Part shown: in pieces, positions 2,152 through 38,447 of the stretch
Layout: the number at the start of each line of letters is the position of its first letter
How positions within the stretch are numbered: position 1 is the first letter of the stretch
DNA from: a virus
Length of the DNA stretch: 38,448 bases
Virus record (IMG/VR): IMGVR_UViG_3300001450_000030
Coordinates: 30,115-68,562 of that record
Reading direction: 5' to 3' (one strand)
Program-made: the position numbers and the translations under genes
Notes under the pieces: generated by a model
The model's input: only the letters and a program-made list of their open reading frames with translations
Databases searched by the model: none
What the model was told of the DNA's origin: nothing

Positions 2152-3363
2152 ATGCCTCTTCTTCCTTCCTTTGTCAATCCTTCTACAAAGCTAAAGCTGC
2201 TTCGTAACAACATTCAAACTGATACTGCTGTCACAAACTTCCAGTCTGACAGCAAGATGAATGCAATTATTGCTCCTGTCGCTGATGAAATCTCAGATGC
2301 ATACAGAGCAGTAAGATTGGCATTCGATGCGAACTCTGTTTCGTCAGCAAAGAGAGAAGACCTTGATGCAGTGGCTGCAAGGATGGGCATTCAGCGAAGA
2401 ACGTCAAGCTTCGCCAGCGCTGACAGTTCCGAGCGCATCGTGGCCTTCTACACTGCTACAACATTTGGAGCAATTAACGGTGGCGCAGATATCAATCTAC
2501 AGAACGTCGTTATTAGCACCCAGCCCATTCAGGGGGCTGGGGCTAACTCAATTGAGTATGTTGTGGGCTCTGCAACTCTGCCTCTCGGCTCAAGCTTGGC
2601 ATATGTAACAGTTAGAGCCAAGTACTCTGGTGGTCAAAGCAATGTTGGCAAGGGCGCTTTGGTCAACCACGACTTCACAGGCTACACAGATTCTTCAGCT
2701 GGATCTCTCAAGGTCGTCAACCTGCACCCCATCCTAAATGGAAGTTATGCAGAAGATGACCAACAGCTTAGGTTTAGGCTTTCAAGACTCAATGCATCAA
2801 GAAAGCAAATATCAGATGATCGAATCTTTCTCAACTCAATCGGAGTTCCTGGGGTCAATGACGTAAGAGTGGAGCATGCTTACTACGGCATTGGAACAGT
2901 TGGAGTGTTTGTACTTGGAGCAGAGAACCAGACGAATGCCACAATGGTTGCACAGGTTCAGTCTCAACTATCAAACATTACAGCTCCAGGAATGCAGCTT
3001 CGTGCTACTGCTGCAACAGAAGTAGCAGTCGACCTAGAGATGGACGTCTTTTTCAACAGGCCAGTTAATCAGAACATCAAAGACAGAGTGTCTATTAGAG
3101 TCCGCTCCTACATTCGAAACCTTGTTAGGAACATTGGGCTTGGAGGATCATTGGACTTCTCGTCTCTTGCTGTCATGTTGAGAAATGAATTTTCAGACAT
3201 CATTACTATTGGAAGTAATGGAAATGCATTCAAGAAGGTCTTTGTAAGAAGAGGCGTCTCGAATGGATTGATGTCGCAAAGAGAGAAAGTCATTGCAAGC
3301 TCTATGTCTCTTGAGAATTATGAGTATGCAAATATTGGGCTCATCACAATTAACTTCGTCTGA
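2152..3363 (+). CDS. Baseplate J-like protein (P2 gpJ / Mu gp47 / T4 gp6 type)
   Basis: This encodes 403 residues from an ATG with a weak GAGAG upstream. Several features of the J-like family are visible. The N-terminal helical part includes 'SSAKREDLDAVAARMGIQRR', the usual 'x-LD-x-hA-x-xG-h-xR' region. A beta-rich middle has a 'GGQSNVGKGALV' turn, and 'EDDQQLRFRLSRLN' matches the conserved E-[ST]D-x-x-hR-x-R segment. Next come 'VPGVNDVRVE' and 'GTVGVFVLGAE', then a C-terminal region with helices and a final beta hairpin. J-like proteins form the wedge ring of contractile baseplates. The next gene starts 8 bases after its TGA, with GAGG at the stop. Confidence 0.85.
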   Translation: MPLLPSFVNPSTKLKLLRNNIQTDTAVTNFQSDSKMNAIIAPVADEISDAYRAVRLAFDANSVSSAKREDLDAVAARMGIQRRTSSFASADSSERIVAFYTATTFGAINGGADINLQNVVISTQPIQGAGANSIEYVVGSATLPLGSSLAYVTVRAKYSGGQSNVGKGALVNHDFTGYTDSSAGSLKVVNLHPILNGSYAEDDQQLRFRLSRLNASRKQISDDRIFLNSIGVPGVNDVRVEHAYYGIGTVGVFVLGAENQTNATMVAQVQSQLSNITAPGMQLRATAATEVAVDLEMDVFFNRPVNQNIKDRVSIRVRSYIRNLVRNIGLGGSLDFSSLAVMLRNEFSDIITIGSNGNAFKKVFVRRGVSNGLMSQREKVIASSMSLENYEYANIGLITINFV

Positions 3364-5807: not shown

Positions 5808-8305
5808 TGGCTTGGCGAACAATCAGTCTTAGTTACAACTTGACCCTTCTCAGGGACGAAAGATCTCCTGCAGTCATCGGTTCATTTAGGGACAATGAAG
5901 GATTCATCTGGGATAGGAGAAAGATGATTGACGAGGACGAAGAAAGTACTCGTCACATGGGTCGCGTAACTCCCCAAGAGTACAACCTGTCAGAGGGCAC
6001 CGTGTTCTCCGACTGGGAATCTGGAACCCCTGGTAGAGGAATTAGATTCGAAGATGACACCATCCAGAGGCAGAACCAGTATCTAACTGCAACTCCCCGG
6101 TACAACGTGGACTCATTCCAGGTGTACAACGAAGACAGATATCTGTTTAGTGATTACTCATACTCCGATATTGCCAAGTCTTCAGGAAACTATTCTACTG
6201 GGTCTGGGGGTGTTAGTGCATTGAATCTGCATGCTGACGCAATGTTCGCAAGCATTGACGCAAGAATCTTCACCAGAAGTGCAGACCTGGTAAACCTTAC
6301 ATGGAAGAAGTTTGAGTATGTGGACGCCTTTACGGGCGTCCTGAGTTCTGGATCAAGAGTTGTCATTGACCCACTGCTTGCAAGCGTTGCTTGGCCTAAC
6401 GTTAGTGATAGGCACAATGAGTTTATTCTGGACGAAGTTCCAGCTACAAAAAGAATTGTGTTCAATCAGGACACTGGATACCAGGTTGGACAGGACAGCA
6501 CTGCAAGTCCCACGCCTGTTGTTGCAGAGTTAACCAATCTCTGGGAGTCAGTTGGCGAAGGCATTACTTCTGGAAGAAGAATCTATGCCAAGTACTTTCC
6601 CTTCGACACAGGAAGTGCGAGAGTAATTTCTGTTGACGGAGCTGGTGCCATTACTCAGTGGACAGAGACTTCCTCACTGGCAACCTCTTTGGTAAGCGAT
6701 AGTCACTTTGAAGTCAACCACGATCTTGGAATCATTCAGATGGGAGGATACAAGGCTGGTGATGTTTACCTTTCTTCTGCTTCTGCTCTCGTCGATACAA
6801 CCATCCAAGTCTTTGATACAGAAGCATTTAGATCCTATCCAGAAAGAGGAGTCTTGAATCTTGGAGCAGAGAAAATTTTCTACACAGAAAAAGGAGATGG
6901 AAAGTTTCTCAATTGCACAAGAGAGTATGATGGGACCTCTGGTCTTTCAAGCAGGCCAAGAGGCTCAACTGTCTCAATGGAGCAACAGGGCGCATCAACC
7001 ACGGACTCCCTGTATATCGCATATAAAGCAGTACCAAGAGTTGAGTATGAGATTACAGACCACAAGCTTAGAACTGCGAATGAAACTCCGTTCCTAGATG
7101 TGCATCCACTAAATCAGTCTGACGATCACAAGATTGTTCAGATCCAGTCTGTCAACAAAGACCTTGCTAGCATTACGCTAGAGGTAGACAGGGCTGCTCT
7201 GGGTGGCAATGTATATGGGCCAGTCTTCTATGGCCGTGACACAGCGATGCTCACGGCCACTGCATACGACTCCCACGGAAATGAGGTTCCAAACCAGCTT
7301 CTAAACATCAAGCTAATTGACGGGCCTGGGGCTCTGGGCTCGGGTGGTGCCACTTACTCTGCAAAGACAAACTCCAATGGCCAGATTCAAACTGTTTATT
7401 CAGCTGGCTTAGACGGGTCAGATGCCTTGAAGAAGACACTTATTGTAAACCACAATGGTGCTGATACAGATATTACCTCTTCTAATATTCCAGCAGGAAC
7501 TTCTGTCAATGACATCTGGGTCTATCACATTCTCAAGCAAGATCCATTTTATGGAGATGCAGGACTAGAAAGGCAGACAACCGCTGTGGTTCAGCAGACT
7601 TCTGGGTTCGGGATGGAGTATTTCGTAGAAGTTCTTGGTCATCTTTCTGAGGAATACGAAGGAGGGTATTTCACTTGGGTCAGAGGTGGGCTTCCAGGTA
7701 TCGCCTATATTCAAGCAGTTGAGCATCTGACAGTTCCAAATAGAAGCAGAGTGTTCACTAGCACCAACCTGACCAGCGGATCTCCTGTCCTTCTTCCGAT
7801 GGATAACATCTATATGAGGAAGCAAGAGGCTGTGCAGTGGGACGCTGCCCTCCTCAATGGTGTCCCAGTTATTGTTCACGAGTATGACGCAACTGCAGAC
7901 CACCCAATAAACGGGGCTGCTTCCGGAGCATATGTTCCAGTTCACCCCGACTCTATATCTGGAAATGTTCTAACTTTTTCAAGCAAGACTCTTCCTCTCC
8001 CCACAGCCGTAGGGGCAACAAACAATATCGGAGCGTATGGTATTGTCTCCCCAGGTCAAGCAAGACTCGTTGCAACAGGTGTGGATCCAGTGACTGGAAA
8101 GACTGTTACAAGCAATGCGATACGTGTTAATCTGGAGTTGCCTGGATATCTAACTGGAGTTACCGCACTGGGGGTGCCGACTGGATACACCATCGGCACT
8201 GGTGAGACTTCTGGATCTGGACTTGGTGGTGCTAACTTTATCACTGTTAACTACCAATCAGGCAGCAGCCTATATGGCTTGACAATTACTTCTATCTTCC
8301 CTTGA
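5804..8305 (+). CDS. Large virion protein with a Big_1/invasin-like Ig domain
   Basis: This encodes 833 residues and overlaps the previous gene by 4 bases. ATG at 5804 or 5807 could serve as the start. Most of the protein is beta-rich. At about residues 475-565 there is a bacterial Ig-like domain of the Big_1 (invasin/intimin) kind: 'TAMLTATAYDSHGNEVPNQL' and then 'KTNSNGQIQTVYSAG', the typical 'T-A-x-x-x-D-x-x-G-x-x-V' opening with a later 'T-x-x-x-G' strand. A second related segment, 'ARLVATGVDPVTGKTV', lies near residues 750-790. Such domains in phage tails usually act as stalk or carbohydrate-binding modules. This is likely a baseplate-attached fibre or spike; the exact role is inferred. 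Confidence 0.8.
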   Translation: MMAWRTISLSYNLTLLRDERSPAVIGSFRDNEGFIWDRRKMIDEDEESTRHMGRVTPQEYNLSEGTVFSDWESGTPGRGIRFEDDTIQRQNQYLTATPRYNVDSFQVYNEDRYLFSDYSYSDIAKSSGNYSTGSGGVSALNLHADAMFASIDARIFTRSADLVNLTWKKFEYVDAFTGVLSSGSRVVIDPLLASVAWPNVSDRHNEFILDEVPATKRIVFNQDTGYQVGQDSTASPTPVVAELTNLWESVGEGITSGRRIYAKYFPFDTGSARVISVDGAGAITQWTETSSLATSLVSDSHFEVNHDLGIIQMGGYKAGDVYLSSASALVDTTIQVFDTEAFRSYPERGVLNLGAEKIFYTEKGDGKFLNCTREYDGTSGLSSRPRGSTVSMEQQGASTTDSLYIAYKAVPRVEYEITDHKLRTANETPFLDVHPLNQSDDHKIVQIQSVNKDLASITLEVDRAALGGNVYGPVFYGRDTAMLTATAYDSHGNEVPNQLLNIKLIDGPGALGSGGATYSAKTNSNGQIQTVYSAGLDGSDALKKTLIVNHNGADTDITSSNIPAGTSVNDIWVYHILKQDPFYGDAGLERQTTAVVQQTSGFGMEYFVEVLGHLSEEYEGGYFTWVRGGLPGIAYIQAVEHLTVPNRSRVFTSTNLTSGSPVLLPMDNIYMRKQEAVQWDAALLNGVPVIVHEYDATADHPINGAASGAYVPVHPDSISGNVLTFSSKTLPLPTAVGATNNIGAYGIVSPGQARLVATGVDPVTGKTVTSNAIRVNLELPGYLTGVTALGVPTGYTIGTGETSGSGLGGANFITVNYQSGSSLYGLTITSIFP

Positions 8306-8312
8306 GGCGATA

Positions 8313-10466
8313 ATGGCTGACAAGACAAGCACCACACTGGTACCCATTACTTTTGCAGCTGGAGAGCAGCCACCTGCAGACAAGCTGACAGCAATCACTG
8401 CTCAGCTTCGTGCAGGTGTGGGCAAGATGGAGTCTCTTTTGGGAGACCCACATGGGGAAGGATTCCCATATGCTTCTGCACTCTCCACTCAGCTGAGTCC
8501 TGCCTGGGGGAGGGCGGTGTCTCCTAATGCCATATTGACAGACAACAGTCTAGCACCTGCATCAGAGAAGAGACTTGACATTGCCAATGTTGCAAGACTG
8601 ATTGGACCTGCATCTAATCTCAGCCCCAAGATGCAGAGTGGAGCTTCTCAGATTACAGAATCAATCCCAAGTGGCACAAGGTCATACCAGCTCAAGTACA
8701 AGCCAGAAGATCCAAATGGAGCCAACACTCCTACTATTACTGGAAGCGACTGGACAACTTACAAGACGACCGGACTGCTTACTGCTTCAACAGACTGGCA
8801 TGTAAGTGACAGGGGCTATGTGACATCAAGAACAGCCCTGACTGGAACCAGAAGCATCACATACACCACTGATCCGAGCAAGTATGGCAATGGGTCTGCA
8901 TACCAGAATGCCAACTTCAATGTCATTCCAACTCCGAACCAGATTAACTCAACTGGAACCGGAGTCACGGTTGCAGCAATATCCGGTGGGAAGCATCGAG
9001 TTACTTTTCCCACAATCAGTCATCAGCAGTCAAACAAGGCTCTTGACCTAACAGAGCTTGGCCATCCTGATTTCAACTATGGCTTGACCTATACTCTTCC
9101 TCAAATCATTCAGACTCTGAGTGCTGGAGATGTAATCCCCAGTGGGTTTGTCGTGCTCTACAACCACACAACCAGCGTGTCATACACTGATGCGCAGTGT
9201 GAGTACGTGAGTCCAAACGAGATCGATGTGTCTGGCATCGATCTAACTACAGAGCTTGGTGCAGGCAATGTGTTCTATGTAATTACAGTTGGAACTGACA
9301 TTACTACAAGCATTGATGATCTGAGAAACAAGTGGAGTGAGCACACTCACGATGGCACTTTTGGAGAGCAGCCAATTAAAGCCTACGACATTGTTGGCTG
9401 GAATGAAACAGCTGGAGAGTTCCTGCCATCTAGTATTAGTGATAACCCTGCTCCTCAGTACTTGAGACGAACAGGGTACCAGTCTGACAGCCAGAGCTAC
9501 AATGACCACAACTTGATGGTTGGCAGCATTGGCTTTGGAGGGAGTGGCGCTGCCAGAGGCTCTGGTCTTGCCTCGACTGGAGAAACTTATAAGGTGTTTT
9601 TCGGTAATGGTGATTGGAACTTTTACAGAAACAGCAATGACCATCTTGAAAGCAATACTAGTGGGACTGCCAAGTATTGGCTAATGAATCATGCATTGAA
9701 TGTGTCAGAAGACACAAGCACTGATGCGGACTTGGCAAACACATCTGTGTTTGCCGATGCGGCAAGTGGTGGTCATGTTGGATCTAAATATGGATCTTTT
9801 TATGGTCAGTCTATTATTGCTGGACCTTATAATGGAAGCGTTACCGACAACACCAAGAAACTTGCCAAGTGGGAGATTGATGCCGATGGCATAACCTCAA
9901 GCGGCTCTGGAGCTACATTTGAAACAAATGGAGCCTCAAATTACTGGGTTACCCCCAGGCATCAAGTGATTTACTTTGCTAGACGATTGGACAACGCAGA
10001 TTCGAATGTCACCATTTCAACTGGAATTGCAATTGCTGGATCTAGTGGGACAAGTGGATCTACAACTTATTCTGAGATTCTTATTGAGCTTCCAGAGTAT
10101 CTTAAGTTTACAGCATCTGGTGCCGACGCTGCCGACGATTGGTCATTTACAGGTGTAAATGCAAATGTTCAGAACGCAATCATGGCTTCATCAATTTTGA
10201 TTAGATCAGAATCAGGATCAAGTTCAACTCGTTGGCATGCAGCTGGATGGGATGCTGAATCTCTTATTGCTTCTTCCGGAACCAATGCCCATGCGCATGT
10301 AACGGCAAGCTCTGAGGTTGTTAGCTATTCTATTGGAAGTAATGGAATAAAAATTAGAATTGTTGAAGCAGGGGATTTTGTAACTTCAAATTGGGGTCCT
10401 ACTGCTAATGATCTTGCGGTAAAGATTACTCTTTGGGTTGCTGCACCTGGAACATACCTAGCGTAA
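8313..10466 (+). CDS. Tail fibre-like structural protein with an HTHDG motif
   Basis: This encodes 717 residues; GAGGCGATA-ATG gives a clear start. The N-terminal 110 residues are helical ('ADKLTAITAQLRAGVGKMES'), probably for attachment. The rest is Ser/Thr/Gly-rich and beta-rich. Around residue 346 lies 'SEHTHDGTFGEQPIKAYDI', an HxH-type motif. HxH motifs in trimeric phage fibres and spikes such as T4 gp12 and P2 gpV can bind a central metal ion. Whether it does so here is unproven. Repeated small Gly/Ser motifs follow ('GSIGFGGSGAARGSG'), and then a large C-terminal beta domain. Role inferred: a host-binding fibre. Confidence 0.8.
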   Translation: MADKTSTTLVPITFAAGEQPPADKLTAITAQLRAGVGKMESLLGDPHGEGFPYASALSTQLSPAWGRAVSPNAILTDNSLAPASEKRLDIANVARLIGPASNLSPKMQSGASQITESIPSGTRSYQLKYKPEDPNGANTPTITGSDWTTYKTTGLLTASTDWHVSDRGYVTSRTALTGTRSITYTTDPSKYGNGSAYQNANFNVIPTPNQINSTGTGVTVAAISGGKHRVTFPTISHQQSNKALDLTELGHPDFNYGLTYTLPQIIQTLSAGDVIPSGFVVLYNHTTSVSYTDAQCEYVSPNEIDVSGIDLTTELGAGNVFYVITVGTDITTSIDDLRNKWSEHTHDGTFGEQPIKAYDIVGWNETAGEFLPSSISDNPAPQYLRRTGYQSDSQSYNDHNLMVGSIGFGGSGAARGSGLASTGETYKVFFGNGDWNFYRNSNDHLESNTSGTAKYWLMNHALNVSEDTSTDADLANTSVFADAASGGHVGSKYGSFYGQSIIAGPYNGSVTDNTKKLAKWEIDADGITSSGSGATFETNGASNYWVTPRHQVIYFARRLDNADSNVTISTGIAIAGSSGTSGSTTYSEILIELPEYLKFTASGADAADDWSFTGVNANVQNAIMASSILIRSESGSSSTRWHAAGWDAESLIASSGTNAHAHVTASSEVVSYSIGSNGIKIRIVEAGDFVTSNWGPTANDLAVKITLWVAAPGTYLA

Positions 10467-25503: not shown

Positions 25504-26445
25504 TCAAATTAGATGATAGATGTCCAGCTTCTTCATGAGTGCAACTCTGTCAGACTTGGAATTAATTTCATGGTCTGAAAAAACTTGCTGTCTCAACTGT
25601 CGGGGCATATTCGCTAGACACCTTGGGTCTTTCCCACTTCCAAAGAATGAGTTAAGAAGGTTCCACTCTTGACGAGAAAACTTTCTTGCCTCTAATTGGT
25701 AATCACGGAATGCTTCAAAGGCAACAGGGTAAAGATCTTTTAGGATCTTTAGTGTCGCTTCTGCATATTCCCTGATCTCAGCTTGAGCATGGGGGTGCAA
25801 CCTCTGCAAGAGAAGACGCATCATGTCACCAAGGTTTATTGTCATGATGAGCTCTGTATACTGGCCTACTGGCAAGACGAAACGAGCCTGCTCTTTGGGA
25901 GCTCCCATCTCAAGCATCTTGTTATAGATGGCTCTTGAATGTTCATAGGCTTGAATCTGCAAGTGGGCAAGCTCCACCTGCATGGCTTCGTCTACGGAGC
26001 CCTCTGACACCTGCTTGTTGTGCTTTGAAGGGATGCGCCAATTGTCTACAATGATGCACTCGTCAGGCATGACACTATAGCGGGCAGACATCTCGCTCCT
26101 GTGGTGCCCACGAATGCGGCACCACTGAGCTACGATAGCAAGAGGCATCTTGTAATGCATCTTGATCTGCACACTAGCGAAGGGGGAGAAGTGCTCCTGG
26201 CTCATAAGGAACCTAAGAAGTTTGTAATCCTTTTCCGCATCTGCATTGCTAGATGCATTGCTGATATAGGAAACACGAGCCTGCTGAGAGATAGACCTGT
26301 CGTCTCCCATGCAATCATTGAGCCTTGCGAATCCATGACTGCCAACAGGTAGCTTTCTCTTCTTGATGTCTTGAATCTGGATAACTCTCTGGATGCCGTC
26401 AAGTGCATCCAGAGGGATCTTTAAGACAATCATGTCATCAGTCAT
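25504..26445 (-). CDS. thyX: Flavin-dependent thymidylate synthase ThyX
   Basis: This encodes 313 residues, overlapping the exonuclease stop by 8 bases. ThyX makes dTMP from dUMP with methylene-tetrahydrofolate and reduced FAD. Family features: 'HFSPFASVQIKMHYKMPLAI', the signature region at 110-123 (R-I-R-G-H-H-R-S-E-M-S-A-R-Y), 'EQARFVLPVGQYTELIMTIN', and 'HPHAQAEIREYAEATL'. The usual signature is RHRxxSxNExSxRY. Here the first His is Ile, the Ser is His and the Asn is Ser, while both Arg, the Glu, the last Ser and the RY are kept. It is longer than many ThyX proteins because of an N-terminal extension and a C-terminal tail. It supplies dTMP for phage DNA. Confidence 0.93.
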   Translation of the reverse strand: MTDDMIVLKIPLDALDGIQRVIQIQDIKKRKLPVGSHGFARLNDCMGDDRSISQQARVSYISNASSNADAEKDYKLLRFLMSQEHFSPFASVQIKMHYKMPLAIVAQWCRIRGHHRSEMSARYSVMPDECIIVDNWRIPSKHNKQVSEGSVDEAMQVELAHLQIQAYEHSRAIYNKMLEMGAPKEQARFVLPVGQYTELIMTINLGDMMRLLLQRLHPHAQAEIREYAEATLKILKDLYPVAFEAFRDYQLEARKFSRQEWNLLNSFFGSGKDPRCLANMPRQLRQQVFSDHEINSKSDRVALMKKLDIYHLI

Positions 26446-30578: not shown

Positions 30579-30606
30579 TAGCCGGGGCAATGCCCCCTTG
30601 CGGCTA
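30579..30606 (-). promoter_or_regulatory. Intergenic hairpin over the primase-helicase stop
   Basis: TAGCC pairs with GGCTA (outer) and GGGGC with GCCCC (inner); a bulge separates them. On the - strand the TAG stop of the primase-helicase gene is part of the stem. No T-run follows, so it may be a weak terminator or an mRNA-stabilising element rather than a strong stop. Confidence 0.5.
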
Positions 30607-33063
30607 GTAGTCTTCGTAAGAGATGCCAAGCGAACCCTCTTGATCAACAGGAGCATTCATTTGCTCCATGATTGCAGGGGACATTAGAGTGAGATCTCTT
30701 GGATTCAGATTAAGTTTAAGAATACCGACCTTGTCAGAATTGACACCAGTAAGCTTGTTCTTTTCCATCTTGATTGCAAGTTGTGGTCTTGTTTGACCAT
30801 GCTCGTCTCGCCAAGTAAACTGGGCGCCAGCTCCCCTGACCACGACGTCATTGATGACATGAGCAATAATGTGAGGTCTATACTGGACCTCGCGAGCATC
30901 AGCAAGCTCGTCCATTGTTGGCCACTTGAGCTGGTTCATGTCATCCACTAGCTGCACCTTGCGATACTCTGCGGTACACATGAAAGCGCACTTGTAGTTG
31001 ACGCTAAAGTCTGTCAGAATGTCTGTATGTTCTGTTAGCTTGTCATTGCGACTTGTTGAGTTTGAGCTGGCAAGTGCAGAGTTATACATGTTGTCCTGAA
31101 TGACCATTAGCTTCTTGTCTGGGTATCTATTTCTTACGTACTCAAGCATCTGCTGGAGAACTGCAATCTTTTTTCCCTCTACTCTGTCCAGCATGATTAG
31201 TCTTTCATTGCGAACGTAGTCTCGGAAAAGCTTTCTTGTTCTTTCGTACTCATTTCTAATGAGTTCATTTCGGATCTTATGAGGCTGAGAGAAGTGAGCC
31301 AGCATCATACTTGGTGATGTGTGGACATCTCTTGTCATGAAGCTCATCATGGACTGGAACATAGGGACGACGCTAGTATAGGCGTCGTCTGTAAGGTGAA
31401 AGATTACAATGGAGTCAGGGTCGTTGACAACAATATCGCAACCCATGCTTCTCAAGACAGCAGATTTTCCATGGTGTGCCTTCCCACCGAGTAGACCAAG
31501 GACTCCTTCTGTCCAGTTGCAGTTGTTAAAGCATGCCTTGAACTCTGGCCAGAACTTCATATTGAATTCAGAACCACCATCCATTTCAGAAAGCTGCTGC
31601 TGTCTGAGTTCGTGAGAGTCAAACTTTTCCAACTGATAGTCTCTTCCATAGGTAACTTTGCCATAGTCATTGCTGATCTTGTTTAGGTCAGACTGATGCT
31701 GAATTAGCAAAGTGTCAATCTGCGATGGATCTTGCTTTGCACCCTGAACGTACTCGTCCAAGGTAGCAAGGAACCTCCCATTCTTTTCGTCTTCAACAGA
31801 GTTCAGAATTCTATTAACGTCCTGAAGCAGACTGAAATATGAGATTCCAGTCTTCAGCTCAAGAGACCGAAGCATTACCTCTCGTCTTGACGACATGGTT
31901 TCAAGTGCGATAGCGGGGATCATCTTGTCGACAATCTCCAAAGGATCTGTTCCGTCTTCAACCCGAGAAAGAGACCATTCGAATGCACTAACTCTTTTGA
32001 GCTGGTTAAAGGAGTCTGCATCAGCAGCGTCAATCAAATACTCGTCAAGATCTTTTGCTTCGCAATCTGTTGGAGGCATCAGGACCTTTAGCTCCAAGCT
32101 GGTCCCAGCGTGCTTGTCAATGGCACGCTGGATGCCTTCCTGGCCGGCATTATCCCAGTCAAACGCAATGCATACTCTTCGGATTCCAATCTTCTTGATC
32201 AGTCTAAGCTGCTCGGAAGAAAGGTTGGCAGAGCCAACAGCGGCAACGTTGGTAATTCCAATTCTGTTAAGCTGCAAGACCTCGCCCATGCCCTCGACCA
32301 AGTACAAGCCCTTTGTCCTTGCAGTCTTCGCTGCAACATCAATGCCCATAAGAGCATTTTTCTTTGTGAAGATTGTAGTGTTTGGAGTGTTAATCCACTT
32401 ACGACTACCTTCGTAAGACTTTTCCTGTCTTGAGTTGAACGCAATTGGGTTGCCATTGTAGTCCCTAATGACAAAGGTTGTCATTGTCTGCCCGATATAC
32501 TGAACAGGAGACCCAGAGGGAAGCAGCCCTCTTCTGGAGGAAACAATTTGTGGATCCCAACCCTTTGAAATTAGGTTGGATCTGATTTCGTCAGGATCTG
32601 CAGAGCCATATGTAAGAAGTGAATTGCCTTCATCATCAAGCCAGTTGCGAGACTCCATGTAATCCTTGCATGGGTCTGGGTCAAGCATGTCTGCAATATC
32701 AGAAACAAGCTGTCGGTCAAGACGTCGAGCCTTGTCGACTTCTGTTTCCAGCCCATACCTAATAGCAAGATTAAATCGCTTTGCTAGATCTTCAACAGCA
32801 TGGATGAATCCATCGCCCTCGATGTTCTTTCCCTCCAAGATAGAGTATGCATCAAAAGTACTAAAAGCCCTCTTGCAAGATCCCTGGCAATACATCTTTG
32901 GTACAAGATCACGATCAAGAAGATACATTGATGGAGTGTTTTCATTGTGTGCGAAACACGAAACTGGCTTTCCTGGGGATGGAAAGATGTTCTGGGTAGA
33001 CAAGTAGTCTACTAGTCTTCTTTTGATTTCTGGAACGAGTTCTTCTACGTTCTTGATATTCAT
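30604..33063 (-). CDS. Fused DNA primase-helicase
   Basis: The start chosen is ATG at 33063, in the upstream stop (TAATG) with CAGGAGCGAATA upstream; a TTG 24 codons earlier is unlikely. The protein has 819 residues. It starts with a CHC2-type zinc site (Cys36, His39, Cys59, Cys63). A TOPRIM domain follows with 'GLYLVEGMGEVLQL' (Glu257) and 'VCIAFDWDNAGQEG' (Asp302, Asp304). The C-terminal part has a RecA-like ATPase with Walker A 'GGKAHHGKS' (526-534) and a weak Walker B-like 'KKLMVIQDN' (about 651-658). The order is that of T7 gp4-type bifunctional enzymes: it primes and unwinds DNA at the fork. Confidence 0.9.
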   Translation of the reverse strand: MNIKNVEELVPEIKRRLVDYLSTQNIFPSPGKPVSCFAHNENTPSMYLLDRDLVPKMYCQGSCKRAFSTFDAYSILEGKNIEGDGFIHAVEDLAKRFNLAIRYGLETEVDKARRLDRQLVSDIADMLDPDPCKDYMESRNWLDDEGNSLLTYGSADPDEIRSNLISKGWDPQIVSSRRGLLPSGSPVQYIGQTMTTFVIRDYNGNPIAFNSRQEKSYEGSRKWINTPNTTIFTKKNALMGIDVAAKTARTKGLYLVEGMGEVLQLNRIGITNVAAVGSANLSSEQLRLIKKIGIRRVCIAFDWDNAGQEGIQRAIDKHAGTSLELKVLMPPTDCEAKDLDEYLIDAADADSFNQLKRVSAFEWSLSRVEDGTDPLEIVDKMIPAIALETMSSRREVMLRSLELKTGISYFSLLQDVNRILNSVEDEKNGRFLATLDEYVQGAKQDPSQIDTLLIQHQSDLNKISNDYGKVTYGRDYQLEKFDSHELRQQQLSEMDGGSEFNMKFWPEFKACFNNCNWTEGVLGLLGGKAHHGKSAVLRSMGCDIVVNDPDSIVIFHLTDDAYTSVVPMFQSMMSFMTRDVHTSPSMMLAHFSQPHKIRNELIRNEYERTRKLFRDYVRNERLIMLDRVEGKKIAVLQQMLEYVRNRYPDKKLMVIQDNMYNSALASSNSTSRNDKLTEHTDILTDFSVNYKCAFMCTAEYRKVQLVDDMNQLKWPTMDELADAREVQYRPHIIAHVINDVVVRGAGAQFTWRDEHGQTRPQLAIKMEKNKLTGVNSDKVGILKLNLNPRDLTLMSPAIMEQMNAPVDQEGSLGISYEDY

Positions 33064-33320
33064 TATTCGCTCCTGATAAATGCAATCTTTGTATCGTGAA
33101 TCTGAACTTGCAAACAACCTTCTGAGGAATTGCAAAGTTCAACGATTTCATAAAACAACTTGCCATGCCTGTGTGGAAGAAGAAACTGACTCAGGTCCAT
33201 GTCAATCATTACCTGGGTCGCATGCATCTTCTGCAAGTAGGGGCCAAACCTTTTGGAGAAGTAATGCTTTCTCCCAGATGAGTTCTGTCGATAGACCCTA
33301 ATCATAAAATACGTTGTCAT
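33063..33320 (-). CDS. Unknown small protein (85 residues)
   Basis: ATG at 33320 is preferred because AAAGGA lies 6 bases upstream; ATG at 33326 immediately abuts that Shine-Dalgarno. The protein is basic and mixed: 'MIRVYRQNSSGRKHYFSKRF' and then a helical part with 'FYEIVELCNSSEGCLQVQIH'. It is coupled to the primase-helicase by a TAATG overlap, so a replication accessory role is plausible but unproven. Confidence 0.72.
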   Translation of the reverse strand: MTTYFMIRVYRQNSSGRKHYFSKRFGPYLQKMHATQVMIDMDLSQFLLPHRHGKLFYEIVELCNSSEGCLQVQIHDTKIAFIRSE

Positions 33321-33403: not shown

Positions 33404-34564
33404 CTAGTCTGCTAGGGGCTCGCCCTTCTCGTCAAAACAAAATGTTTGATAGTCGCACAAGGAGCAAACCTTGTTAAACCTTTCAATTCTCTTGTTGACT
33501 CTTTTGGGCTTAAGCATAGTGGGTTTCTTGGGACGAGGATTATTAAACGGATCGCCATTGTAGGCCTCGATAGCCTTCTCGTACTCTTTGGTTCTCAAAG
33601 CATTTGTGGGCTCAACTGAATTGTTATACTCAATTTGCCCCTTTCTTTTTTCATGCTTTGTAGCCTGACCTGCTGGAAGCTCGCCGTTCTTGTACATCTT
33701 TTCGATGGTGTCTTCAGTCAGGATCCAATCGTAGTCGCGAGGAGGCAGTCCACCGTCTTTGACAGTGGAGAGAATCATTCTAGCGCTATCCATCATGGAG
33801 TCCATGGTGTAGCCTGAGTTTCTCCAGGGGAACGTATTGGGGCAGACTTGCTGATACCAAATGTACTCCTTGCCATCCTCCCCCAGCCTGACGTCTACAT
33901 TGTACTCGCCCATTTCTCCATGAGCCCGACCTGCATAAATCAGCTTGGAGTACTCATATGCGTCGGGGTCAGCAGAAGTTTTATGCCAGTGATAGAAAGC
34001 AATCTGCAATAGATGCTTGATGCGTGGCTTGGCTTCTCTGTGGTTGTTGATCATCCAGTTGGTACCAATACACTGGTCAACCCAGTAGGGGGAGATACTC
34101 TTAACCTCTACAAGTACATACTTCTGGGTTTCTTGCCTGAATAGACAGATGTCTATCTTTCCGGAAAACCTTGTTTCATGGTAGTAAACAGGACACTGAT
34201 CGTCGTAATACATCCCTGATCGCTTTGCGTCATTAATGATGTAGTCCTCAAATACGTTTCCAAACTCACCCATTCTCTTCAATTCATCTGATCTTTCAAT
34301 TGGAATTTGATCAATGTCTTTTAGAATAATGTGATGAAAGTCTGAAAGCTTGTCAGGCATGAAGCCTCTCAGTCTCTTGATGTAAGAGATTGCAGTAGCA
34401 CGCCTGCATGCTCCCCCTACAACTTCCTCCCCGTTGTCTGCAACTCTAGTTGCAGTTGCCGATGACGGCCAAAGAGTTGGAGGCTTTGGCTCCCTCAGAC
34501 TTGGGTACCCAAGAACAGATTGAAGTGTTTTTGCAAAAGACCAAGTCTGGTTTTCGCTACTCAA
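33404..34564 (-). CDS. Cas4/RecB-like PD-(D/E)XK nuclease with Fe-S cysteines
   Basis: The start is TTG at 34564, supported by GGAG six bases upstream inside the previous gene's end. The protein has 386 residues. Core motifs are 'GEFGNVFEDYIIN' (Glu106), 'RFSGKIDICLF' (Asp138), 'YVLVEVKSISPYW' (Glu153, Lys155) and 'HLLQIAFYHWH' (Gln187), an intact RecB-type active site. Cys53 near the N-terminus and 'CSLCDYQTFC' near the C-terminus (Cys367, Cys370, Cys376) give the typical Fe-S one-plus-three pattern of Cas4, Exo5 and AddB. There are no CRISPR or Cas genes around it, so it is probably a phage replication or recombination exonuclease. It lies between the polymerase and primase-helicase genes. 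Confidence 0.85.
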   Translation of the reverse strand: MSSENQTWSFAKTLQSVLGYPSLREPKPPTLWPSSATATRVADNGEEVVGGACRRATAISYIKRLRGFMPDKLSDFHHIILKDIDQIPIERSDELKRMGEFGNVFEDYIINDAKRSGMYYDDQCPVYYHETRFSGKIDICLFRQETQKYVLVEVKSISPYWVDQCIGTNWMINNHREAKPRIKHLLQIAFYHWHKTSADPDAYEYSKLIYAGRAHGEMGEYNVDVRLGEDGKEYIWYQQVCPNTFPWRNSGYTMDSMMDSARMILSTVKDGGLPPRDYDWILTEDTIEKMYKNGELPAGQATKHEKRKGQIEYNNSVEPTNALRTKEYEKAIEAYNGDPFNNPRPKKPTMLKPKRVNKRIERFNKVCSLCDYQTFCFDEKGEPLAD

Positions 34565-34919
34565 AATTCACTCCAGCACTTTCCAAGTCCGAAGACTTAG
34601 TCTCTGCCTGAGCCTGCTGAGCCTTGCGAGCTTCCTTCTCAAGAGCATCAATGTATGTTTCGATAAACTTCTTGTAAGACTCCGGAGTAAGATCAAAGAT
34701 CTTAGCCTTGGAAGCCCTGCGAATAAGCTCAGCCTGCTCTGCATCTAGATTCAATGCGATGATCAGTCCTTCGCAGAAAGGAACCAGAGAAGCCTGGGTG
34801 AGCTGCATAAACAGCCACTCAAGATCTGCACTGAGCTTTGTGGTTGCAGTTGAAAGCTCCATTAGGTGCTGTGTCTGCGTCTTGAGGTAGTTCTTAAGGT
34901 CGTTACCTGCGTCTTCCAT
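34557..34919 (-). CDS. Unknown helical protein (120 residues)
   Basis: The ATG at 34919 has AAAAGGAAAAATT upstream and overlaps the polymerase's 3' end by 17 bases. An upstream in-frame start 18 codons earlier is unlikely. Helices dominate: 'LKNYLKTQTQHLMELSTATT', 'LTPESYKKFIETYIDALEKE' and a Gln/Ala-rich tail. It is coupled to both the polymerase and the Fe-S nuclease, so an accessory or bridging role is possible. No family is recognised. Confidence 0.75.
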   Translation of the reverse strand: MEDAGNDLKNYLKTQTQHLMELSTATTKLSADLEWLFMQLTQASLVPFCEGLIIALNLDAEQAELIRRASKAKIFDLTPESYKKFIETYIDALEKEARKAQQAQAETKSSDLESAGVNFE

Positions 34920-37512
34920 AATTTTTCCTTTTGTATTGACTTGTGCAAAAAGGTTTTTCTGCACCATACACATGTAGGTGGTTGATGCTTAGAGAGACCT
35001 TGAGCTCTCCATCATTGGTTTCGATTGTCTTGCCTCTGTACTTGATGAATACGATTTCACCAGGTGACGGAAGGTCGCCCTTCTTGGTGTGATCTTTCTT
35101 GTTGACATAGGCATTGACAATGGTTTCTCCATGTGCAAGCGTGGCACGAATGCTCTGTCTTCCATTGCTTTGCTTTTTCAACTCTACAGAAATTACAGAT
35201 GCAGATGCAGAGCCATATGCATTCCCATTCATGATGTGTTTCTTTGCGAAGGTGAGGTGGGGGACACTTGGAAAACACTCGTCACAGAGATCTCTATCTG
35301 TGAGATAGCAGCCAATATATGTTGCCTGCTTAATCATGTCAGGGATTGAGATCCTAGATGGAGCCCTCAAGAGCTTGGGTCTTACTGGCTCTTTCTTTGG
35401 TCTCAAAGCTGGCATCTTCTTGAATGGCCTTTCCTCTCCCAAGAAGTCAATTGTTTCGACTTCAAGTTCTTGCAGCCTTTTCCATTCTGGAAGGCAAGAT
35501 TTTGTAGCAAAGTCCATGGCTTCGTATTTCTTTCGCTTGAACATTGCTCTGAGTTTTTTTCTTTCGTCAATCAGTGGAGTGACAAATTCTCTAAACTCAA
35601 GTCTTTCCCGAGTTGCAACTAAGTGATCTTGGTATGCAATTCTATCTCTCCAGTATTTGTAAAGGTCTCCCATCTTGTTCCCAAGATCAACACCATAGTA
35701 TCCCAGCTGAGAAAATGCCCCAGAGCAAGCAAGTGCCTCTGCAGTTCCCTTGTTTACCTTAGAGATGCATCTGACAACAAAGTCATCAATGTCCTTGAAG
35801 GGCCTATCGCCTCTCAGCTTCTCAATAGTCTGAGAGGCTGAGGACCCAACGTCCTTGATTCCAGAGAAACCAAAGTAGATATTGTTTCCAACAATGTTAA
35901 AGCTTTCACCAGAATGGTTTACTGATGGTTCTTTTACCTGAACATCAAAGATGTTTGCTTCCTGAATATACTTACCAGCTTTGGTTTGCCAAGCAGCAGA
36001 TCCATCAAGAGTGGATCTGATTGTCATTAGCGCACAGAAGAACTCTTCTGGGTAGAATGTCTTAAGCCACATGGTTACATATGTCAAACGAGCATAGGCA
36101 ATGGAGTGTGACTTGTTGAAAGCATATGCAGCGAATCCAATAATGTCATCCCACAAAGATGTAGCCTGTCCTTTAGTAAGCCCATTTGAAATGGAACCAC
36201 TTACAAACTGGGGCTTGAGCTTTGCCATCTTGTCTTCTTTCTTCTTCGCACAATGTCTCATTGCCATTAGTGCATCATCAGAATTGAAACCACCAATCTT
36301 CTCAAAGATCTGCATCAGGGTTTCCTGATAGATGATTGTATAGTGAGTGGAGCTCAAAACTTCTGCAACCAAAGGGTGCATATCTGCAGGAGGCTTGCCG
36401 CTAATGCGGTTTCTTTGGTACTGGTCGGGCATGCCTGCAGACAGTGGTCCCGGCCTATAGAGGGCCAGGACAACTGCAAGATGCTCAATGCAGGTTGGGT
36501 CAATCTTCTGGATGACATCGGCCATTCCATCTGATGTCTCAATCTGAAACCCACCAGACAGAAGGCCAGCCATCATGTTGTCGTATACAGCCTTCTCACC
36601 GTCAGGCATGTCTTCATGAAGATCAAGATCCTCTCCATGGTTTTCCTTGATTAGCCTAAAGCATTCAAACACAATGTCAAGGTTCTTGATTGACAGTGCA
36701 TCATACTTCAGCAGAGAAACACGTGGGTCTTCTAGCTCATCCTTGTCCCACTCTGTAACCATCTTCTTGACTTCTACATTCTTTCCATCAACCTTCTTCT
36801 TCTCTTTCTTGATTCGGATTGGGCACCTGTTGATGATGGGCTCATTGCTGATAACCACACCACCTGCATGGATGCCTGCACCGATTGTCAGCCCCTCCAA
36901 GACGGGGGCATCGTGTATGAGGTCTGCATTGACTTCAGAAAGCTCAGGATTGGCGTCTAGGGCCTTCTGCCATGTGGGCTCAGCACCCTGCACTGCATCT
37001 GGAATCAAAGACTTGACCTGGGTCTTTTGCTTGTTCCAAGACATCTTCTTCTTGAACCATGCATCCTTCTGAGCGTCAGTAAGACCAGCCTCCATAGGGG
37101 CTGGCTCGTTGACGCTGTACCACCTGTCCACAATACCCTTGGGCTTAAGAGTGTTGTATGTGCCAATGTAGGCACTCCTGTCTTCACCCCAGATCTCCTT
37201 GAGAACATTGATTGCATCATGCCTCTGGGCTGCAAGGAAGTCTACGTCAATGTCCGGAGGTGCGCCACCACTAACATCGCATCTCTCTCTGTCAAAGTCA
37301 AACTCGTCAGAGAGGCCAACAATGTAGAGGATAATGCTGTTGTGTGGATTTGGAAGTGCCTTGTCAAAGTCTAGGTCTAGGAGCCCAAGAACCCTGTCTA
37401 GGTCTGACTCGTCAATCTTCTTTTCCTCAAAGTGCAGATAGTCTGGATCAATCTCGTCCAGCCTGTCCTGCAAGTAGTAATCTTGCAGTCTGTTTAGCTT
37501 ATCCTCTGCCAT
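34903..37512 (-). CDS. DNA polymerase III alpha-like protein lacking the N-terminal third
   Basis: This encodes 869 residues; AAGGATTAACA-ATG gives a clear start. C-family polymerase motifs: 'PPDIDVDF' (Asp87, Asp89), 'GIHAGGVVIS' (213-222), 'LLKYDALSIKNLDI' (Asp271, the third catalytic Asp), 'YRPGPLSAGM' (352-361), 'YQETLMQIFEKIGG', 'FAAYAFNKSHSIAYARLTYV', and a C-terminal OB-like part with 'GEIVFIKYRGKTIETNDGEL'. In bacterial DnaE the PDxDxDF motif comes near residue 400, after the PHP domain and a GRGSAAGS-type loop; here it comes at 86. So about 310 N-terminal residues, including PHP and part of the palm, are missing. They may lie elsewhere as a separate gene. Confidence 0.92.
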   Translation of the reverse strand: MAEDKLNRLQDYYLQDRLDEIDPDYLHFEEKKIDESDLDRVLGLLDLDFDKALPNPHNSIILYIVGLSDEFDFDRERCDVSGGAPPDIDVDFLAAQRHDAINVLKEIWGEDRSAYIGTYNTLKPKGIVDRWYSVNEPAPMEAGLTDAQKDAWFKKKMSWNKQKTQVKSLIPDAVQGAEPTWQKALDANPELSEVNADLIHDAPVLEGLTIGAGIHAGGVVISNEPIINRCPIRIKKEKKKVDGKNVEVKKMVTEWDKDELEDPRVSLLKYDALSIKNLDIVFECFRLIKENHGEDLDLHEDMPDGEKAVYDNMMAGLLSGGFQIETSDGMADVIQKIDPTCIEHLAVVLALYRPGPLSAGMPDQYQRNRISGKPPADMHPLVAEVLSSTHYTIIYQETLMQIFEKIGGFNSDDALMAMRHCAKKKEDKMAKLKPQFVSGSISNGLTKGQATSLWDDIIGFAAYAFNKSHSIAYARLTYVTMWLKTFYPEEFFCALMTIRSTLDGSAAWQTKAGKYIQEANIFDVQVKEPSVNHSGESFNIVGNNIYFGFSGIKDVGSSASQTIEKLRGDRPFKDIDDFVVRCISKVNKGTAEALACSGAFSQLGYYGVDLGNKMGDLYKYWRDRIAYQDHLVATRERLEFREFVTPLIDERKKLRAMFKRKKYEAMDFATKSCLPEWKRLQELEVETIDFLGEERPFKKMPALRPKKEPVRPKLLRAPSRISIPDMIKQATYIGCYLTDRDLCDECFPSVPHLTFAKKHIMNGNAYGSASASVISVELKKQSNGRQSIRATLAHGETIVNAYVNKKDHTKKGDLPSPGEIVFIKYRGKTIETNDGELKVSLSINHLHVYGAEKPFCTSQYKRKNYGRRR

Positions 37513-37982: not shown

Positions 37983-38447
37983 TTAGTGTTCCTTTTCATC
38001 GGCGTCGGCAGCGCGGAGGACGGCACCGCTGAGGTCGGCACCGGTGAGCTTGGCACCCCACAGGTTGGCACCACGGAGGACGGCACCGGTGAGCTGGGCA
38101 CCACTGAGGTCGGCATTGATGAAATGGGCACCACTGAGGTCGGCATTGATGAGGTTGGCACCGGTGAGGTCTGCACCCCAGAGGTCGGCACGGCTGAGGT
38201 CGGCACCGGTGAGGTCTGCACCCCAGAGGTCGGCACGGCTGAGGTCGGCACCGGTGAGCTGGGCACCACTGAGGTCGGCATTGATGAAATGGGCACCACT
38301 GAGGTCGGCACGGGTGAGGTTGGCACCGTTCAGGTCTGCGCCGCTCAGGTCCAGCGGCATACCCAGAGCCTCCGACAGCGTCCTGGCCTGATCGACGCGC
38401 CCTGCCCTGACCAGTTCGATGAGCTTCTTTTTGTTGTCGTCGGTCAT
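37983..38447 (-). CDS. Pentapeptide-repeat protein
   Basis: This encodes 154 residues starting at the right edge (ATG at 38447). After a 31-residue helical N-terminus ('KKKLIELVRAGRVDQARTLS') come about 22 repeats of the A(D/N)LxG kind, for example 'ADLSGAQLTGADLSRADLWG'. Such proteins form a right-handed square beta helix. In some cases they mimic DNA and block gyrase, but most have no known role. The gene is clearly richer in G and C than its neighbours and contains long exact repeats, both signs of recent transfer or expansion. A two-base gap separates it from the next gene. Confidence 0.88.
   Translation of the reverse strand: MTDDNKKKLIELVRAGRVDQARTLSEALGMPLDLSGADLNGANLTRADLSGAHFINADLSGAQLTGADLSRADLWGADLTGADLSRADLWGADLTGANLINADLSGAHFINADLSGAQLTGAVLRGANLWGAKLTGADLSGAVLRAADADEKEH
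38081..38310. repeat. Exact internal repeats in the pentapeptide gene
   Basis: A 65-base segment (38081-38145) is repeated exactly at 38246-38310, and a 45-base unit is tandemly repeated (38157-38201 and 38202-38246). The 45-base unit equals three pentapeptides, so the frame is kept. Exact identity at the DNA level indicates recent duplication or ongoing slippage. Confidence 0.88.

What the first reader, a model, noticed from the sequence alone, without database searches (positions are those of the whole stretch)
34903..37512. DNA polymerase III alpha without PHP domain and first third
All three catalytic Asp and the downstream C-family motifs are present, but PDIDVDF is at residue 86 instead of near 400. 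The PHP domain and the GRGSAAGS-type loop are missing, and the two genes just upstream do not supply them. The phage may have a split polymerase with the N-terminal half in trans, or a shortened enzyme.
Basis: partly seen in the sequence, partly recalled or inferred. Interest (0 to 1): 0.75.

Follow-up and report, generated by a model that had tools for sequence, protein, structure and literature searches.

The report
Phage replicative polymerase split mid-palm
This phage gene encodes only the back part of a bacterial-type replicative DNA polymerase, and in about twenty related viruses the missing front part is a separate gene, so the enzyme seems to be built from two proteins that must meet across its own active site.

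Summary
On the minus strand, 37512..34903 encodes an 869-aa Pol III alpha (family C) with DxD (D87, D89), third Asp D271, fingers, HHH and an OB fold, but no PHP and no GRGS loop. Start, ribosome-binding site and upstream stop are clean.

It is not a frameshift. Residues 1-85 are a conserved coding domain. Relatives found by profile search carry the same domain in front of the same motif, and the missing part (PHP, palm-N, GPGRGSAAGS; about 420-440 aa) is a separate gene 0.25-9 kb away, often with opposite-strand genes between. 22 viral contigs carry both halves. Pfam PF07733 breaks at the same point: N-halves match about 2-104, split-clade C-halves about 98-260.

Our phage branches at the base of this split clade. 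Its own N-half was not found, but the contig ends 936 bp upstream of the gene.

Two other lineages (L014, L508) have the same split and a homologous extension, yet nest among unsplit polymerases. The fracture therefore arose or moved more than once.

Best reading: a two-subunit Pol III alpha, completed in trans without splicing. Split phage polymerases have precedents, so this is a new variant of a known kind. Assembly and activity are inferred, not shown.

The parts
34903..37512 (-). C-terminal half of a split DNA polymerase III alpha (869 aa)
   Evidence: the best NCBIfam DnaE models begin at residue 84-86; AlphaFold2 pLDDT 85.3, best PDB matches are Pol III alpha
37258..37512 (-). Conserved N-terminal extension (residues 1-85) that replaces PHP/palm-N in this chain; helical, candidate docking domain
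   Evidence: profile of 13 other split C-halves hits it with E 1e-30 leave-one-out; coding-type substitution pattern; residues 1-70 pLDDT about 82-95
37237..37257 (-). PDIDVDF motif, catalytic Asp87 and Asp89; split point lies immediately before it
36700..36702 (-). third catalytic Asp (D271, LLKYDAL)
   Evidence: invariant
36694..37266 (-). second part of palm (PF07733 positions 99-259)
36181..36684 (-). fingers domain (PF17657)
35701..35943 (-). HHH domain (PF14579)
34969..35220 (-). C-terminal OB-like beta barrel (residues 765-848)
   Evidence: AlphaFold2 strands and weak SSB/OB matches; OB Pfam match in homologue L418
37519..37523 (-). AAGGA ribosome-binding site upstream of the ATG; supports a real gene start
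34557..34973 (-). small 138-aa gene after the polymerase; relatives have small ORFs at the same place (position only, no sequence match)
33404..34564 (-). Cas4-like exonuclease gene, syntenic with split-polymerase relatives
   Evidence: PHROG 1990; homologues in 17 of the 22 loci compared
30604..33135 (-). primase/helicase gene, syntenic with split-polymerase relatives

Best explanation
The ORF is the catalytic C-terminal subunit of a two-gene DNA polymerase III alpha. The partner subunit, lying beyond this contig's end, carries PHP, the start of the palm and the nucleotide-binding GRGS (hG[GS]) loop. The two proteins associate without splicing, so the palm is completed in trans: GRGS from one chain, the three Asp from the other. 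The 85-aa N-terminal extension is a helical module kept for this assembly. Shown: the two-gene arrangement in relatives, conservation of both halves, and homology of the extension. Inferred: that this phage has the partner, and that the proteins assemble and are active without splicing.
For: Relatives L105, L106, L109, L259, L268, L273 and others have N-half and C-half genes. 16 of 17 N-half records also hold a C-half; 6 further records hold both. PF07733 breaks at the same place: N-halves match about 2-104 and C-halves about 98-260. The extension evolves as protein (codon positions 0.46/0.33/0.61 differing) and belongs to one family with ours. GPGRGSxxGS is essentially invariant in detached N-halves, and the catalytic Asp in C-halves, so both stay under selection. 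Tree: P0001 groups with 13 split C-halves, 100/95 support. Opposite-strand genes between the halves in many contigs make cis-splicing unlikely. The extension has no intein signature, whereas neighbouring true inteins are recognised.
Against: This phage's own N-half is not seen. G026 (98.6 kb) holds a C-half 6 kb from a contig end without an N-half. No complex was modelled. N-half and C-half overlap in content (see report), so the geometry of the assembled palm is unclear.
Confidence: 0.8

Rival explanations
1. The halves are joined after synthesis: a split intein or a (trans-)splicing intron sits at the palm site and a full-length enzyme results.
For: The active-site motifs are intron/intein hot spots here: true split inteins at FADY|CFNK in L105/L106 and at GRG|S in L063, HEG-type interruptions at LLFER|FLNP in L082 and before DIDVDF in L014.
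Against: No intein family matches the extension or the N-half tails although the same search finds the real inteins. N-half tails can be as short as ..TPLIFTEEMLQS. The extension is conserved protein. No Rfam intron reached threshold (no positive control). Gaps hold opposite-strand genes.
Confidence: 0.08
2. The C-half works alone as a shortened polymerase; the extension stands in for palm-N and the separate N-half is only a PHP nuclease.
For: The extension is predicted helical with good confidence and ends next to the DxD strand; its last part weakly resembles the palm helix after GRGS (hhalign P 0.0017; Pfam aligns L508 from that point).
Against: The extension lacks the hG[GS]/GRGS loop needed in polymerase-beta-like palms (from knowledge of the fold), while the loop stays essentially invariant in the detached N-halves.
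Confidence: 0.09
3. Artefact or decay: frameshift, misassembly or dead gene.
For: Contig end is close; some annotated 'split' phage polymerases look like frameshifts (KKP 3709, WP1).
Against: Clean start and stop context; same architecture in about 20 distinct contigs; all motifs intact; conserved extension.
Confidence: 0.02

Closest known systems
Split minimal DNA polymerase III alpha of group 2.2 jumbo phages (Iyer et al. 2021, PMC7824862)
   Same: Family C catalytic core encoded as an N-terminal NTP-binding protein and a C-terminal Mg/template-binding protein by distant genes
   Different: Those are minimal versions without the other Pol III domains, beside a family B polymerase (one C-family fragment is 172 aa in phage CBB, PMC5259590). 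Here PHP, fingers, HHH and OB are kept and a specific 85-aa extension is present. No direct sequence comparison was run.
Split gene 43 (family B polymerase) of T4-like Aeromonas phages 25 and 44RR, and split nrdA of Aeh1 (PMC2988022; Crona 2011 cited in PMC3267527)
   Same: Phage replication enzyme split in two genes, in part by a homing endonuclease; subunits assemble and are active (43A/43B of phage 25 co-purify) without splicing
   Different: Different enzyme families and split sites; here the split separates the two parts of a polymerase-beta-type active site
Cyanobacterial DnaE with split intein (Caspi 2003, cited in PMC3919608)
   Same: DnaE encoded by two genes
   Different: Joined by trans-splicing; no intein signature at the split studied here
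Rhodococcus phage Trina gp101/gp102 (NC_042040)
   Same: Isolated phage with DnaE annotated as two adjacent genes (303 and 956 aa)
   Different: From the lengths, split near the PHP/palm border, not within the palm; genes overlap by 4 bp; not aligned here

Membership tests
Bacterial DNA polymerase III alpha (family C, DnaE-like) | Three catalytic Asp, fingers domain, HHH | tested here: met
Bacterial DNA polymerase III alpha (family C, DnaE-like) | Fold like solved Pol III alpha | tested here: met
   Foldseek best matches 7pu7, 4iqj, 2hpi, E<=3e-33
Bacterial DNA polymerase III alpha (family C, DnaE-like) | PHP domain and GRGS loop in the same chain | tested here: not met
   absent from the ORF and from the record; on a separate gene in relatives
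Two-gene split Pol III alpha (this report's clade) | C-half with the 85-aa extension directly before PDIDxDF | tested here: met
   profile E 1e-30 leave-one-out; tree 100/95
Two-gene split Pol III alpha (this report's clade) | Separate N-half gene in the same genome | tested here: inconclusive
   not in the 68.6-kb record, which ends 936 bp upstream; present in 22 related contigs
Split-intein DnaE (cyanobacterial type) | N- and C-intein splicing domains flanking the break | tested here: not met
   no intein family on P0001, the L106 N-half or L418, while real inteins in L105, L106 and L063 are detected
Jumbo-phage minimal split Pol III (Iyer 2021) | Only palm and template-binding parts, other Pol III domains absent | tested here: not met
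   fingers, HHH and OB present; PHP present in N-halves
Non-covalently reconstituted split enzyme | Subunits bind and are active together without splicing | not testable with these tools
   needs protein work; single-chain prediction only

The most novel reading that the evidence does not exclude
The extension is a portable docking module of a 'fracture cassette' (stop plus tail, intervening genes, new start plus extension) that has been inserted at the PDIDxDF motif of unrelated phage Pol III alpha genes, in at least one case with a LAGLIDADG endonuclease (L014), so that an essential enzyme becomes dependent on two separately encoded parts completing its active site.
Probability: 0.35. Interest if true: 0.75.

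Novelty: new variant of a known kind. Interest (0 to 1): 0.62.

Why it matters
A conserved split through the nucleotide-binding core of a replicative polymerase would be a natural test of how a polymerase-beta-type active site can be assembled from two chains. The recurrence in three polymerase lineages, in a gene also riddled with inteins and homing endonucleases, makes the origin of split enzymes from mobile elements testable by sequence alone. Annotation pipelines will call these C-halves 'truncated' and miss the partner.

Tried and rejected
Single-protein search for close relatives gave nothing. Extension versus canonical palm-N in ours alone: not significant (985 of 5000 shuffles score as high); profile-profile P 0.0017 at only 15% probability, so descent from palm-N is left as suggestive. 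First guess that the HN|S at residues 57-59 marks a C-intein: rejected, no intein profile match and no conserved splicing pattern across relatives. Rfam introns: none at threshold, no positive control. N-ext in isolated phages: no match covers 80% of a 135-aa query. The genome-collection scan returned matches that mostly start at residue 58-86, as ordinary DnaE would (not examined further).

Full report
Observation. The gene lies on the minus strand, 37512 to 34903, 869 aa. Pfam sees the fingers and HHH domains in full but PF07733 only from position 99; the best DnaE models of NCBIfam begin to align at residue 84-86. D87, D89 and D271 are invariant in an alignment with 44 other polymerases. 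There is a stop before the ATG and an AAGGA site. No PHP and no N-half profile match exists in the 68,562-base record, but the record ends 936 bp upstream of the gene, after a 128-aa ORF and a pentapeptide-repeat gene.

Relatives. A profile of this protein with L014 and three unsplit relatives found L105, L106 and L109, whose C-halves match from residue 5-6 of ours. Each has an upstream gene of 429-443 aa with PHP, palm-N and GPGRGSAAGSLVAYALxITxVDPIKYGLIFERFLNxGR..P.IF. and a short tail. A profile of these N-halves brought in about a dozen more. In 16 of 17 such records a C-half is also present; the exception is a 44-kb fragment. A search by the neighbouring primase gave further records, six with both halves. 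Total 22 contigs, one pair of which looks identical. Gaps run from 251 bp to about 9 kb; in many contigs one or more opposite-strand ORFs fill the gap.

Where the break is. In the three N-halves tested PF07733 matches up to about position 105; in C-halves of the main clade and L014 it matches from about 96-100 to 260. So the split lies between the GRGS loop with its helix and the DxD strand. From knowledge of the polymerase-beta fold, GRGS is the hG[GS] nucleotide-binding motif; thus the active site is divided. In the detached N-halves GPGRGS is invariant in all 16 aligned, and the PHP metal-ligand positions are kept, apart from rows with a shortened start.

The extension. Fourteen main-clade sequences share an 80-90-aa N-terminus..YxxxRlxxvDxDFLxfEe...NPhNSilLYxtGltDeFdFxkaRsdtxGGsPPDIDIDF. 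Leave-one-out, the profile hits ours at E 1e-30. Codon-position differences (0.46, 0.33, 0.61) show coding selection. AlphaFold2 folds residues 1-70 as helices with pLDDT about 82-95, then a loop, then the DxD strand. L014 (18.1 bits, 0 of about 10,000 shuffles) and L508 (22 bits) carry divergent copies.

Phylogeny. On the palm-C/fingers region our protein is the first branch of the split clade (100/95), with unsplit L176 and L269 nearest. L014 sits with unsplit L099/L101 (97/83), and its N-half is 66% identical to L099 but 39% to L106. L508 groups with unsplit L283/L289 (FastTree 0.92). So the same split with a homologous extension occurs in three places of the tree. In L014 the gap is a LAGLIDADG endonuclease gene, and the extension has the low G+C of that gene (0.30 against 0.38). 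This resembles the Aeh1 split reductase, whose interaction domains were reported to derive from a mobile element (title cited in PMC3267527; not read here).

An overlap. The last third of the extension aligns weakly with the palm helix after GRGS (hhalign P 0.0017; Pfam aligns L508 from position 70 of PF07733), while N-halves still hold that helix and a remnant (..TPLIF) of the next strand without the Asp. Duplication with complementary decay is possible but not established.

Mechanism. Two chains that complete one palm in trans fit best; splicing is disfavoured (no intein or intron signature, opposite-strand genes in the gaps). None of the relatives comes from an isolated phage, and no protein evidence exists. 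Known parallels are split gene 43 and nrdA in T4-like phages and the minimal split Pol III of jumbo phages, so the kind is known; the split within full-domain Pol III alpha, the conserved extension and its spread look new within the papers I could search.

Noticed in passing
L105 11276-15634, L106 about 6650-9210 (also L433, L434): A second fracture of the same polymerase: split intein at FADY|CFNKSH with several genes, some structural-like, between N- and C-intein halves (TIGR01445/TIGR01443).
   Followed up: partly
L063 9902-12097 and 5903-7387: Split intein exactly inside the GRG|S loop of a phage Pol III alpha (C-intein ..VHN|SVVGSL), with intervening genes.
   Followed up: partly
L438/L439 (G011, G012): The extension itself is on a small ORF separate from the rest of the C-half, i.e. 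a further break just before PPDIDIDF.
   Followed up: no
L082 7547-12397; L013 2687-7049: Pol III alpha interrupted by endonuclease-bearing inserts at other points, e.g. LLFER|FLNP.
   Followed up: no
window 37983-38447: Pentapeptide-repeat protein starting at the very end of the contig.
   Followed up: no
window 2152-3363, 25504-26445; L002 6753-9098: Baseplate wedge, ThyX and tail sheath: the phage is a myovirus; most large structural ORFs of the window match no PHROG family.
   Followed up: no
L003 2173-11052: 2959-aa tail-region ORF with ambiguous bases (X residues) in this assembly.
   Followed up: no
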